A stretch of DNA of 58,691 bases. Origin: an uncultured Acidimicrobiales bacterium. Its GTDB lineage: Bacteria; Actinomycetota; Acidimicrobiia; Acidimicrobiales; SZUA-35. Position numbers and translations under genes: made by a program. A model generated the notes under the pieces. It was not told where the DNA came from. It ran no database searches and was given only the letters and a program-made list of their open reading frames with translations. Location: positions 1 to 58,691 of the forward strand of contig CAKZXA010000062.1 of assembly GCA_937922045.1 (NCBI GenBank). The letters run 5' to 3'. Shown here in pieces: positions 53,141 to 56,019 of the stretch (the stretch's first letter is position 1; every line of letters begins with the position of its first letter).

Positions 53141-54247
53141 CTAGGCCGCAACCTCAGCGTGATCGAGAGCGCGGCAGTCTTGTGTGCTCCAGCTGATGCT
53201 GGTCTCGCCACCGACCTCCGGAACCTTCTGATTGGAAGCATTCGGTACCTTTACGACGAACTCGTCATTGCCGAGAACATCGAGACGGCACCGAATGTGG
53301 TCGCCCAAGTAGATCAATTCGCAGACCTTAGCATCAACGACGTTGTCGCCGAGCTCGCCAATAGTGACGCGCTCAGGTCGAATCGAAAGCTGTGAAAGGT
53401 CACCCTTGCCGCCACAGTTGACGGCGAGAGCCTTGATAGTGGTGTCGCCCACCGAAACGTGAGCGACATCGCCGACGAGCTCTTCAACTCGACCGGTGAA
53501 CTTGTTGTTTTCGCCAATGAACTGGGCCACGAACGAGGTTTCGGGCTTCTCGTAAAGTTCGGATGGGCCGGCCAGCTGCTGGATGCGGCCGTCGTCGAAG
53601 ACCGCTATGCGGTCCGACATTGTCAGGGCTTCGCTCTGGTCGTGGGTGACGTAGACAACGGTGACTCCGAGGTTCTCATGGATGCGCTTGATCTCATACT
53701 GCATCTCCTCGCGAAGCTGCTTATCAAGGGCGCCAAGGGGTTCGTCCATCAGCACCAGCTCGGCATCGAAGACAAGGGCTCGGGCCACAGCGATTCGTTG
53801 CTGCTGGCCGCCGGAAAGCTGGGCCGGACGGCGGCTACCAAACTCGCCCATGCGGACCATGTCGAGCGCTCGCTGCACCTTGTCTTGTCGTGTGCTTTTG
53901 TCCATGCCTCGTACCTCGAGGGGGAACGACAGGTTCTCACCCACGGTCATGTGAGGAAAGAGGGCGTAGTTCTGAAACACCATGCCGATGCCACGCTTGT
54001 GGGGCGGGATGTTGTTGATCGAAACACCGTCGAGCAAAATCTGGCCGTGGGTGGCGGTTTCAAATCCAGCCAACATCATCAGGCATGTCGTCTTGCCCGA
54101 ACCTGACGGCCCGAGCATCGTGACGAATTCGCCCTTTTCGATCTTGAGATTGAGATCCTTGACAACGAGTGTTTTGCCGTCGTAGCTTTTCTGCACGCCG
54201 TCAAAGGCGACATACGCGCTGCTGTCGGTCATGCTGGTTTCGGTCAC
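53141..54247 (-). CDS. Polyamine-type ABC transporter ATPase (PotA type)
   Basis: 368 residues. Three starts are close: ATG 54250 (too near the GGAGA site), GTG 54247 (3 nt after it, chosen) and ATG 54232. Walker A GPSGSGKTT, Q-loop VFQNYALFPHMTVGENL, signature LSGGQQQRIAVARAL, Walker B LVLMDEPLGALD, switch His in VTHDQSEAL. A C-terminal TOBE domain (about 275-355) has RPERVTIGE. It powers the PotBC-type permeases encoded downstream. Confidence 0.93.
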   Translation of the reverse strand: MTETSMTDSSAYVAFDGVQKSYDGKTLVVKDLNLKIEKGEFVTMLGPSGSGKTTCLMMLAGFETATHGQILLDGVSINNIPPHKRGIGMVFQNYALFPHMTVGENLSFPLEVRGMDKSTRQDKVQRALDMVRMGEFGSRRPAQLSGGQQQRIAVARALVFDAELVLMDEPLGALDKQLREEMQYEIKRIHENLGVTVVYVTHDQSEALTMSDRIAVFDDGRIQQLAGPSELYEKPETSFVAQFIGENNKFTGRVEELVGDVAHVSVGDTTIKALAVNCGGKGDLSQLSIRPERVTIGELGDNVVDAKVCELIYLGDHIRCRLDVLGNDEFVVKVPNASNQKVPEVGGETSISWSTQDCRALDHAEVAA

Positions 54248-54310
54248 CATTCTCCGCTCGTCAGCTGGTACGCGCGGTGCCGCCTGCAACGCGCTTCTCC
54301 GCGAAGGTAG

Positions 54311-54324
54311 TGCCGAATTCGGCA
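54311..54324. promoter_or_regulatory. 14-bp perfect palindrome upstream of potA
   Basis: TGCCGAATTCGGCA is its own reverse complement and lies ~65 bp ahead of the ATPase gene start, in the 158-bp gap after the selenoprotein-like gene. Probable operator for a dimeric repressor. A CGCG-cttctc-CGCG hairpin is close by (54290-54303). Confidence 0.45.
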
Positions 54325-54369
54325 ATTTTCCACCACCTCGCAGCATTGGCATACAACGTGAAACTCCGT

Positions 54370-54392
54370 GAGTGCTACCTGTGGAGTGCTAC
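54370..54392. repeat. Direct repeat GAGTGCTAC, period 14
   Basis: GAGTGCTAC at 54370-54378 and 54384-54392, in the same gap near the end of the selenoprotein-like gene. Could be part of an operator, or just a small duplication. Confidence 0.5.
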
Positions 54393-54405
54393 GAAGCCCG
54401 TCGAG

Positions 54406-54705
54406 CTAGATTTCGCAGGTCGAAGGATCGCGGTAGATCACGGCGACAAGGCTCGATCCTATCAACCGCTTTTTGGCCACAAGGTGAACCTCATCGGCCA
54501 AGCGTTGAATAGTAGGTGCAACGAGGACGGTGATGTCCTCGTGCTGAACCTTGCGATAGCTTTGTGTCTTCTTGCCCTTGAGGTAGGTGTCGACCGACAC
54601 CGAATCAACGCCGCTTCAACCGTGCTTCGGAATCCAGTCGATCGCGGCGGTGCCACCCTTGCGTCGCACAAGCTCAGCGGCTTCGGGCGTTACTTCAACC
54701 TGCAT
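54406..54705 (-). CDS. Probable selenoprotein, HesB-like (CC/Se motif) type, with in-frame UGA
   Basis: From ATG 54705 the frame runs 29 codons (MQVEVTPEAAELVRRKGG ... IDWIPKHG) to TGA (54618-54616). It continues in the same frame for 69 codons (SGVDSVSVDTYLKGKKTQSY ... ITVLVAPTIQRLADEV) to TAG 54406. Both halves have normal codon use and together form one ~99-residue alpha/beta domain. The shape (M-x-VEVT start, GG-x-x-ID strand, G-U-x-G turn, ITVLV strand) resembles the small HesB-like/CC-Se motif selenoproteins as I recall them, with Sec at the place of the first Cys. A SECIS-like hairpin follows the UGA. If UGA is a real stop, only a 64-residue fragment from GTG 54600 would remain. Role: unknown redox protein, possibly co-transcribed with the polyamine-type ABC operon. 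Confidence 0.6.
54586..54618 (-). promoter_or_regulatory. UGA codon with bacterial SECIS-like hairpin
   Basis: After UGA (54618-54616) come 20 nt to the apical loop of GGUGUC-GGUC-GACACC (54601-54586): a 6-bp stem with loop GGUC. The loop is the same as in E. coli fdhF, and the distance is similar (18 nt there). The G at the start of the loop agrees with the bacterial SECIS rule. No bulged U is visible in the stem. Confidence 0.55.
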
Positions 54706-54711
54706 CACAAC

Positions 54712-54718
54712 TAGCGTA
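54712..54718. promoter_or_regulatory. Shared -10 element of a bidirectional leaderless promoter
   Basis: The sequence TAGCGTA lies between two divergent ATGs. On the plus strand TAGCGT is 6 nt before ATG 54724; on the minus strand TACGCT is 7 nt before ATG 54705. Both fit the actinobacterial leaderless pattern TANNNT-N6/7-ATG. Neither gene has a good ribosome-binding site. Confidence 0.5.
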
Positions 54719-54723
54719 GAGCA

Positions 54724-56019
54724 ATGCAGGCGATCAGCGACAACCCGGCCCGCGCCGGGTGGTTAGCTTGGCTTCCGGTCGCGGCCCTCGGGTTATACAC
54801 CATCACCTCCTACGGCACGTGGGCCTACGGCTTCGGCGTGCTGATCGAAGCCATCAGCATCGACACGGGATGGTCGACCTCTTCCTTGGGTGCCACCTTT
54901 GGCGTGGCGATGATGCTGAGCGGCCTGCTCGCCTTCGCTGCAGGCCGGCTCCTCGACCGCTTCGGCCCGCTCATGCCCTTCGCCATTCACGCCACGATTG
55001 CCAGCGGGCTTCTCCTGGCCGCCTTCTCGGTTCACAACGAGGTGGCCTTCGGTGTTCTCTACGGCATCGGGGGCGGTTTGAGTGGTGCCACCGGGTTCTA
55101 CGCCATGACTACGGTGATGGCAGCCCGGGCTCGGCCGGACCGCCCCGATCGAGCCATCGCCATCCTCACCATGATCGGCGCCTTGTGTAGCCCCATCTAT
55201 CTCCCCTTGACCGCATGGCTCTTGACCCTCTGGCACTGGCGCACCGTCGGCCGGGCCCTCGTCGTGGCCGGAGTGGTCGGCGCCGTACTCGCCGCCATCG
55301 CTACGCGGCTGACTGAAAGCCAGGCCGTCGACCTAGGCACACCAGCGCCCTCAGCCAATCCGTTCAGCGCTCTGGCCGCCGCTATTCGGGTGCCGTCGAT
55401 TCGCCGAATGCTCGCCGTGTACGCCTTGGCGGGCGCTGCGGCGTCGACCGTTTGGGTCTACCAGGTGCCGATCATGGCCGGTACCGGCCTGGCCTTGCGC
55501 ACCGCCGGTGTTCTCGGCGGGTTGCGCGGATTCTGCCAGCTGTTCGGCCGTATGGGGTTGACGGCGGCCGTTGAACGGTTCGGCTCAGGAGCGCTGCTGC
55601 GCGGCGCCTACCTCACCACAGCAATCGGCTCGACCGCCCTCCTGGCCTCGGGGCTTGGCTGGTTTGGCGCCAGCACCAACGCTCTCGCTGGAGCCGCTGT
55701 CTGCTTTGCCGTTCTCGGAGGTGTTGGGCTCGGCGCCTCCAGTCCACTGCAGGCCATCTACTCGCGTTCGCTTTTCGACCCGGCCGACCTTGGCCTGCTG
55801 ATGGGGATGCAAGGTGCCGTGCTCGGACTTGCAGGCGGTGCCGGCCCCTTCATCGGCGCACTCCTTCGGGATGCCACTGGCGGGTGGTCGGCCACCGTCG
55901 GCGCAGTCATCGTTGCCCTGCTCATCGGTGGTGTCCTGCTCCGTCCTGGTTACCAGCCTCCCGTGCCGGGTTCGCCCTTGAAGGGGCCGACGAGTTCGGC
56001 GGTTACCCAGCCCCCGTAG
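54724..56019 (+). CDS. MFS transporter
   Basis: 431 residues, 12 membrane helices. The loop 2-3 motif is AAGRLLDRFGPLMPFA (like G-x-x-x-D-R-x-G). Similar to monocarboxylate/oxalate-type MFS proteins of actinobacteria, but the substrate cannot be told. Only 18 bp separate its ATG from the divergent selenoprotein-like gene. The end overlaps the convergent DUF427 gene by 70 bp. Confidence 0.88.
   Translation: MQAISDNPARAGWLAWLPVAALGLYTITSYGTWAYGFGVLIEAISIDTGWSTSSLGATFGVAMMLSGLLAFAAGRLLDRFGPLMPFAIHATIASGLLLAAFSVHNEVAFGVLYGIGGGLSGATGFYAMTTVMAARARPDRPDRAIAILTMIGALCSPIYLPLTAWLLTLWHWRTVGRALVVAGVVGAVLAAIATRLTESQAVDLGTPAPSANPFSALAAAIRVPSIRRMLAVYALAGAAASTVWVYQVPIMAGTGLALRTAGVLGGLRGFCQLFGRMGLTAAVERFGSGALLRGAYLTTAIGSTALLASGLGWFGASTNALAGAAVCFAVLGGVGLGASSPLQAIYSRSLFDPADLGLLMGMQGAVLGLAGGAGPFIGALLRDATGGWSATVGAVIVALLIGGVLLRPGYQPPVPGSPLKGPTSSAVTQPP

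What the first reader, a model, noticed from the sequence alone, without database searches (positions are those of the whole stretch)
54406..54705. Candidate selenoprotein with UGA-Sec codon and GGUC-loop SECIS
An in-frame UGA splits an otherwise continuous 99-codon gene. A 6-bp stem with a GGUC loop starts at the right distance, like E. coli fdhF. The protein resembles the HesB-like/CC-Se motif family as I recall it. Gene finders would call only the 64-residue 3' part or nothing. Sec is rare in Acidimicrobiia-like lineages, so the host would need SelABCD.
Basis: partly seen in the sequence, partly recalled or inferred. Interest (0 to 1): 0.85.

Follow-up and report, generated by a model that had tools for sequence, protein, structure and literature searches.

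The report
Selenium protein with IscA-like fold
A stop codon inside a small actinobacterial gene is very probably read as the selenium amino acid selenocysteine; the protein resembles iron-sulphur carrier proteins, and some of its relatives seem to carry a second selenocysteine almost at their end.

Summary
On the minus strand, 54705-54406 is a 99-codon gene with one in-frame UGA (codon 30) and, 20 nt after it, a 6-bp hairpin with a GGUC loop. The genome holds selA-selB, a Sec-type selD and tRNA-Sec, and two more UGA genes, SelD and FdhA-like. Of 395 class genomes 31 have a homologue, each with an in-frame TGA. In 44 distinct loci read, the UGA sits at one column and the hairpin pairs fully in 41; four distant homologues have Cys there and no hairpin. 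Hairpin codons are frozen, most others are not. UGA = Sec is strongly supported, not shown by experiment. The predicted fold matches IscA/SufA/HesB-type proteins; a profile alignment puts Sec30 on their first conserved Cys. Unexpected: 16 of the 44 have a second UGA at the C-terminal Cys, with its own covarying hairpin in the 3' untranslated region. The family is a divergent branch of NCBIfam NF041239, below its cut-off. Its role, Fe-S/metal carrier or selenol redox protein, is inferred.

The parts
54406..54705 (-). Selenoprotein gene, 99 codons plus TAG stop, UGA read as Sec
   Evidence: Translation with TGA=U, no other stop; 44 distinct loci with the same reading; NF041239 match E 2.1e-8, 34.1 bits
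54616..54618 (-). In-frame UGA, codon 30, Sec30 (at the first IscA-type ligand Cys in the profile alignment)
   Evidence: UGA in 44 of 44 distinct loci, Cys in 4 of 4 distant homologues; profile alignment with 24 PF01521 proteins
54586..54601 (-). bSECIS apical hairpin, 6-bp stem with GGUC loop (loop 54592-54595)
   Evidence: fully paired in 41 of 44 loci; codons frozen; absent in 4 of 4 Cys homologues
54415..54417 (-). Cys97 codon (TGC), the position that is a second UGA in 16 of the 44 loci
54406..54600 (-). 64-aa ORF that a standard ORF list gives instead of the gene

Best explanation
The gene encodes a small selenoprotein. Shown by computation: the ribosome would stop at codon 30 unless SelB and tRNA-Sec read the UGA as selenocysteine, and the mRNA carries the SECIS hairpin that SelB needs 20 nt further on, in a genome with the whole Sec machinery. 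The protein is predicted to have the fold of the A-type iron-sulphur carriers (IscA/SufA/HesB), with Sec30 at the place of their first conserved Cys and Cys97 at the place of the first Cys of their C-terminal CxC. In one third of the relatives read, Cys97 is itself replaced by a second Sec, with a second SECIS in the 3' untranslated region. Inferred: Sec30 and Cys/Sec97 (with a His two residues later in 27 of the 44 loci) form one site that binds a metal or an Fe-S cluster, or holds and passes on a sulphur or selenium atom, in an A-type-carrier manner. Odds for the parts: UGA = Sec 0.97; IscA-like fold 0.85; second UGA of relatives = Sec 0.9; metal or cluster site rather than pure redox pair 0.45.
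For: Machinery: selA and selB adjacent on C103, tRNA-Sec with anticodon TCA, selD with its own in-frame TGA in SHGAG-U-AAK; an FdhA-like gene with NRT-U-HAPSV and a GGUCU-loop hairpin 18 nt on. Homologues: 31 of 395 class genomes, each with TGA inside; all 31 also have SelA (hypergeometric 2.9e-6, relatedness ignored), as has the host of L067. UGA at one column in 44 of 44 distinct loci, no UAA or UAG there. Cys at that column in L061, L062, L063, L066, with no hairpin in any of the 4. Codons 35-40 (GAG GTG TCG GTC GAC ACC) identical in 37/37, 44/44, 40/40, 44/44, 42/43, 41/44, no simulation of 3000 reaching any of these. Two double compensations: L053 GGUGGC-GGUC-GCCACC, which changes two residues to keep the stem, and L043 CGUGUC..GACACG. 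Second UGA: 16 loci; 15 of 16 with a GG/GU-loop hairpin of >=6 bp, loop 17-22 nt on, against 1 of 23 loci with Cys there (Fisher 9.8e-9); 6 of 6 pairs change on both sides, 0 of 500 shuffles reach the covariation score; followed by x-His in 16 of 16. Fold: AlphaFold2 pLDDT 86, pTM 0.78; ranks 1-12 of Foldseek are IscA/SufA/HesB/DsrR-type entries (best E 2.9e-4); VIA-align Z 8.6 (2.8 A over 85 residues) for SufA, ten such entries Z 3.9-8.6, next row 2.1.
Against: No protein or 75Se evidence exists here. L020, L097 and L098, close relatives of the window, have one G.A mismatch in the stem. The UGA1 stem varies so little that its covariation test is weak (6 distinct rows, 26 of 500 shuffles as high). 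Fold energy of the single sequence is ordinary. The structure model used 6 sequences and Cys for Sec, its C-terminal ten residues have pLDDT 71, and Foldseek TM-scores are 0.5-0.6. Sequence support for the IscA relation is modest: hhalign P 4.2e-4, probability 34%; it does not reach Cys97, and MAFFT with one IscA-type row put the two first Cys three columns apart. No Pfam PF01521 match. The second CxC Cys of IscA is missing (Ile in the window). L029 has no Cys97. No conserved gene neighbour was seen that would name a partner (by eye).
Confidence: 0.9

Rival explanations
1. Function rival: same selenoprotein, but the pair Sec30/Cys97 (or Sec30/Sec97) works as a redox couple (selenenyl-sulphide or diselenide), for instance reducing peroxides or disulphides, and binds no metal.
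For: Most selenoproteins with a known role are oxidoreductases (review PMC13188914, section 7 part 2 read). Cys97 is replaced by Sec in 16 of 44 loci, as expected of a partner residue; on the tree this takes 3 changes.
Against: The fold that matches is that of Fe-S carriers, not of thioredoxin-like proteins. A His two residues after Cys/Sec97 in 27 of 44 loci looks like a ligand.
Confidence: 0.4
2. The in-frame UGA is a true stop or a recent nonsense mutation; the 64-aa ORF or nothing is made.
For: A standard ORF list gives two pieces.
Against: 44 of 44 distinct loci keep UGA at the same codon, with the frame open on both sides and residues conserved downstream; four Cys homologues; frozen hairpin codons.
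Confidence: 0.01
3. The UGA is read as another residue (Trp, or Cys by near-cognate readthrough) by a changed code or leaky stop.
For: None specific.
Against: 15 of 32 ORFs of 250 aa or more in the window end in TGA, so UGA is a stop here; Sec machinery is present; the homologues have Cys, not Trp; the hairpin goes with UGA and not with Cys.
Confidence: 0.02
4. In the 16 two-UGA relatives the second UGA is the real stop, and the hairpins behind it are transcription terminators.
For: Hairpins just behind stop codons are common; the protein would lose only 3-4 residues.
Against: 12 of 16 hairpins have exactly GGUC in the loop and the other four GGU or GUU, at 17-22 nt, against 1 of 23 Cys loci with any GG/GU-loop hairpin; UGA aligns with the conserved C-terminal Cys and is followed by x-His in 16 of 16, as Cys is in eleven of the Cys loci; I see no U-run behind the stems printed.
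Confidence: 0.08

Closest known systems
NCBIfam NF041239, CC/Se motif family (seleno)protein (Moor_selen_rel)
   Same: Best sequence match of the window protein (E 2.1e-8, residues 1-73) and of five of the six relatives scanned, L034, L047, L041, L067, L061 (L047 only E 0.015; the piece of L053 given, 66 aa, matched nothing). Listed in the 2026 review as a selenoprotein family first predicted in Moorella thermoacetica (PMC13188914, passage).
   Different: Score 34.1 against a cut-off of 40. The typical members found here have GCCGG (L055-L059), the window GUSG. The review gives the motif CxxU and one Sec; the window has Lys at -3, and 16 relatives have two UGAs.
A-type Fe-S carriers (IscA, SufA, ErpA, HesB; Pfam PF01521)
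   Same: Predicted fold; the first Cys aligned with Sec30 in the profile alignment; the C-terminal Cys aligned with Cys97 by MAFFT.
   Different: No PF01521 match; no CxC at the C-terminus; the genome has a separate PF01521 protein with GGCSGF and TCGCG.
HesB-like selenoprotein (NCBIfam TIGR01911)
   Same: Also a Sec-bearing HesB relative; the review gives its motif as UxGP (PMC13188914, passage); in Methanococcus maripaludis 75Se-labelled, function not clear, distantly related to IscA (PMC11097638, passages).
   Different: TIGR01911 did not match the window protein at E <= 10. Its details beyond these passages were not compared.

Membership tests
Bacterial selenoprotein gene (SelB/SECIS-dependent) | In-frame UGA with Cys or Sec at the position in homologues | tested here: met
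   UGA in 44 of 44 distinct loci, Cys in 4 of 4 distant homologues
Bacterial selenoprotein gene (SelB/SECIS-dependent) | bSECIS hairpin 16-37 nt after the UGA, G at the start of a small loop | tested here: met
   20 nt, 6 bp, GGUC, -15.3 kcal/mol; limits from PMC13188914 section 5
Bacterial selenoprotein gene (SelB/SECIS-dependent) | Host has selA, selB, selC, selD | tested here: met
Bacterial selenoprotein gene (SelB/SECIS-dependent) | Sec in the protein | not testable with these tools
   Needs 75Se labelling or mass spectrometry
NF041239 CC/Se motif family | Score over the curated cut-off (40 bits) | tested here: not met
   34.1 bits; 27.4 in the genome search
NF041239 CC/Se motif family | CC (or C/U) motif | tested here: not met
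   GUSG in the window; typical members found here have GCCGG
A-type Fe-S carrier (IscA/SufA/HesB) | Fold | tested here: met
   Predicted model only: Foldseek E 2.9e-4 to IscA, VIA Z 8.6 to SufA
A-type Fe-S carrier (IscA/SufA/HesB) | Pfam PF01521 sequence match | tested here: not met
   No match up to E 10 for the window protein, up to E 1 for the 6 members of A1
A-type Fe-S carrier (IscA/SufA/HesB) | Three conserved Cys (one inner, CxC at the C-terminus; recalled, seen in L068) | tested here: not met
   Sec30 and Cys97 only; Ile at 99 in the window, His in 27 of 44 loci
A-type Fe-S carrier (IscA/SufA/HesB) | Binds and transfers Fe or an Fe-S cluster | not testable with these tools
   Needs reconstitution
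HesB-like selenoprotein TIGR01911 | Match to the NCBIfam model | tested here: not met
   Not among matches up to E 10

The most novel reading that the evidence does not exclude
An A-type-carrier-like protein whose metal or Fe-S site is held by selenium instead of sulphur: one Sec ligand in the window's lineage, two Sec ligands in other Acidimicrobiia-like lineages, the second put in by a SECIS that lies wholly in the 3' untranslated region of a bacterial mRNA. If so, it is a natural Se-ligated Fe-S or soft-metal carrier.
Probability: 0.35. Interest if true: 0.8.

Novelty: new variant of a known kind. Interest (0 to 1): 0.6.

Why it matters
A gene that ordinary annotation would cut short is a real selenoprotein of a little-studied but widespread actinobacterial class in which two thirds of the sampled genomes have SelA. 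Its branch has Sec at a place where Fe-S carriers have a cluster ligand, and in part of the branch a second Sec at the other ligand place, with a second SECIS behind the stop codon. That gives a 100-residue, easily expressed protein in which Se against S, and one against two Sec, can be compared at a natural candidate metal site. The residue swap D39A with S37A in L053, which keeps the RNA stem at the cost of two otherwise conserved residues, also suggests how far the SECIS dictates protein sequence.

Tried and rejected
Rfam scan of 54000-55200: nothing relevant. No tRNA in the window. Plasmid and phage records hold no relative at E 1e-5. The PDB holds no sequence relative up to E 1. Pfam gave Rap_GAP at E 0.02, under its cut-off, dismissed as chance. 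'Hypothetical protein DG' (motif GUxG, NF049953 in the review table; PMC12013277, passages) looked like a candidate for the same family; it was reported from Desulfosediminicola, and the window protein did not match NF049953 up to E 10 (whether that model is in the NCBIfam release used was not checked), so I set it aside without having seen its sequence. A conserved operon partner: neighbours read by eye only; nothing shared across families was seen. First scan of the homologues read minus-strand loci on the wrong strand and was redone. A4 was a mixed alignment with L036 shifted and was not used.

Literature: no paper found that ties Sec to Acidimicrobiia selenoproteins or to a two-Sec form of this family. 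This library lacks most subscription journals, and PMC12013261 (Haft and Tolstoy 2025) and PMC9879109 (Haft and Gwadz 2023), the two most likely places, are not held. PMC5649159 (passage) notes SelA and SelB in most sponge-symbiont bins of various phyla. So 'new' means not found here.

Rows left out: G205 (hit with 1 TGA, no locus fetched); L095 (same coding sequence as L020); L065 (the window again). L055-L060 and L064 (typical CC members) were read but not put in the tree. The Cys97 control used 23 loci; eight later ones (L096-L103) were not scanned. The hairpin scan for position 97 used loop starts 14-24 nt, the shuffle control 17-20 nt, so the shuffle rates (0.5-3.5%) are somewhat low for the wider range. 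SelA was not tested in the nine genomes added. Of the four Cys homologues' hosts two have SelA (G533, G707) and two do not (G513, G552).

Full report
What is there. The gene lies on the minus strand, 54705-54406: ATG, UGA at codon 30 (54618-54616), TAG stop, 99 codons in all. The standard code leaves only a 64-codon ORF. The hairpin GGUGUC-GGUC-GACACC (54601-54586) begins its loop 20 nt after the UGA and meets the published limits of bacterial SECIS elements (PMC13188914, section 5). Alone this is suggestive and no more: shuffled windows give such a TGA-hairpin pair in 4 of 20 cases, and the fold energy has z -1.46.

The host can make Sec. One SelA hit (E 1.6e-98) and the best SelB hit (over the cut-off) are neighbours on contig C103, as a 431-aa and a 567-aa ORF. 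tRNA-Sec with anticodon TCA stands at the end of C89. selD (E 1.6e-107) has one in-frame TGA itself, read as SHGAG-U-AAK, with a hairpin GGCGCAG-GUU-CUGCGCC whose loop begins 33 nt on. A third UGA gene is an FdhA-like ORF with NRT-U-HAPSV and a GGUCU-loop hairpin, loop 18 nt on; its match to TIGR01553 is in pieces and below that model's cut-off. UGA is also an ordinary stop here: 15 of 32 long ORFs of the window end in TGA.

The relatives decide it. A scan of public genome contigs gave five relatives, 47-80% identical, all with TGA at the same codon. A profile search of 395 genomes of the class gave 31 with a match, each with at least one TGA inside; all 31 also have SelA, which 267 of the 395 have at E 0.001 and 263 over the cut-off (chance 2.9e-6 if genomes were independent, which they are not). 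Among 21 nearest relatives 11 have it, again each with a TGA; within the genus 9 of 12. Reading these loci gave 44 distinct sequences with UGA at one alignment column and with the frame open on both sides. A search of 396 genomes of the phylum with NF041239 found 12 genomes, among them four homologues outside the class that align throughout and have Cys at this column (L061, L062, L063, L066), and one more UGA form (L067).

The hairpin goes with the UGA. It is fully paired in 41 of 44 loci; L020, L097 and L098, near relatives of the window, have one G.A mismatch. None of the four Cys homologues has it. The six codons that make it are almost frozen (GAG 37/37, GTG 44/44, TCG 40/40, GTC 44/44, GAC 42/43, ACC 41/44; 0 of 3000 simulations each), whereas of 14 other conserved columns only Gly17 and Gly31 (p 3e-4, 2e-3) and weakly Gly44 and Lys45 (0.03, 0.05) stand out. 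L053 changes both arms (and with them Ser37 and Asp39 to Ala), L043 swaps an outer G-C for C-G. With only six distinct rows the formal covariation test is weak (26 of 500 shuffles as high).

A second selenocysteine in relatives. In 16 of the 44 loci (L030-L040, L045, L046, L047, L049, L050) the conserved C-terminal Cys97 is a second UGA, followed by x-His and, at once or one residue later, a stop. Fifteen of the 16 have a hairpin of 6 bp or more with a loop that begins GG or GU, 17-22 nt after this UGA; the sixteenth, L033, has it with one mismatch by my reading. In most of them the stem lies behind the stop codon. Of 23 loci with Cys at this place one (L067, 5 bp, GGACA) scores in the same scan (Fisher 9.8e-9 without regard to relatedness). 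In the 12 with a GGUC loop (10 distinct; L038 and L049 pair in another register and count against), all six pairs change on both sides, 86.7% of cells pair, and no shuffle of 500 reaches the score. So the stems keep their shape and loop, not their letters, which is what SelB would ask for. On a tree of 48 sequences the C/U state at 97 needs 3 changes (2 at least by the well-supported branches), and the four Cys30 forms are one side of one branch (support 90/66).

What kind of protein. AlphaFold2 on six sequences (Cys for Sec) gives pLDDT 86, pTM 0.78. Foldseek ranks 1-12 in the PDB are IscA, SufA, HI1723, AQ_1857, DsrR and a YneR model, the best E 2.9e-4; unrelated entries follow. VIA-align gives SufA Z 8.6 (2.8 A, 85 residues), ten entries of this kind at 3.9-8.6, then 2.1. 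A profile alignment with 24 PF01521 proteins of relatives has P 4.2e-4, probability 34%, and puts Sec30 on their first Cys, in GGCSGF; it ends before Cys97. A MAFFT alignment with the genome's own PF01521 protein puts Cys97 on the first Cys of its TCGCG but the inner Cys three columns off. Pfam PF01521 does not match. I take the fold as likely (0.85) and the ligand places as a good guess.

How it most likely works. Shown by sequence: a UGA, a SECIS, the machinery, conservation. Inferred: Sec30 and Cys97 (or Sec97), with His99 in 27 of 44 loci, face each other as the ligand Cys of IscA do (those residues recalled) and hold a metal, a cluster or a chalcogen atom. The strongest rival is a redox pair. 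Nothing in the neighbourhood helps: the gene sits 18 bp from a divergent transporter-like ORF and 53 bp from an ABC-ATPase-like ORF on its own strand (names by eye), and relatives sit next to other genes. It is not a fixed part of Sec synthesis, since most SelA-bearing genomes of the class lack it (31 of 267).

What is known. NF041239 is a described (seleno)protein family; the window protein scores 34.1 bits against its cut-off of 40, and its motif differs. The 2026 review lists that family with one Sec and motif CxxU (PMC13188914, passage). I found no paper on a two-Sec form or on selenoproteins of this class (searches named under Tried and rejected), but the most likely papers are not held. 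Hence: new variant of a known kind.

Noticed in passing
L010 (own genome C14:85125-86042, minus): selD of this genome has its own in-frame UGA (SHGAG-U-AAK) with a GUU-loop hairpin 33 nt downstream: a Sec-type selenophosphate synthetase.
   Followed up: partly
L104 (own genome C36:6988-7437, minus): FdhA-like gene with NRT-U-HAPSV and a hairpin with GGUCU loop 18 nt downstream; probable third selenoprotein of the genome.
   Followed up: partly
L030-L040, L045-L047, L049, L050: Relatives with a second UGA at the C-terminal Cys and a SECIS-like hairpin mostly behind the stop codon.
   Followed up: yes
L069:11592-11912 (own genome C103): The only PF01521 (IscA/HesB) gene of the genome lies about 1.3 kb upstream of selA-selB on the same strand.
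   Followed up: no
window 54705-54724: Start codons of the selenoprotein gene (minus) and of a divergent transporter-like ORF (plus, 54724) lie 18 bp apart, little room for two promoters; one of the starts may be wrong or transcripts leaderless.
   Followed up: no
L058 and L067 (genome G667): One genome outside the class holds both a typical GCCGG member of NF041239 and a UGA form like the window's.
   Followed up: no
L029: A UGA30 relative without Cys or Sec at 97 and with a long acidic C-terminal extension.
   Followed up: no
L062, behind the stop of the Cys homologue: A short tandem repeat (GTGAGGCCCGGCGGCTGC...) right at and after the stop codon.
   Followed up: no
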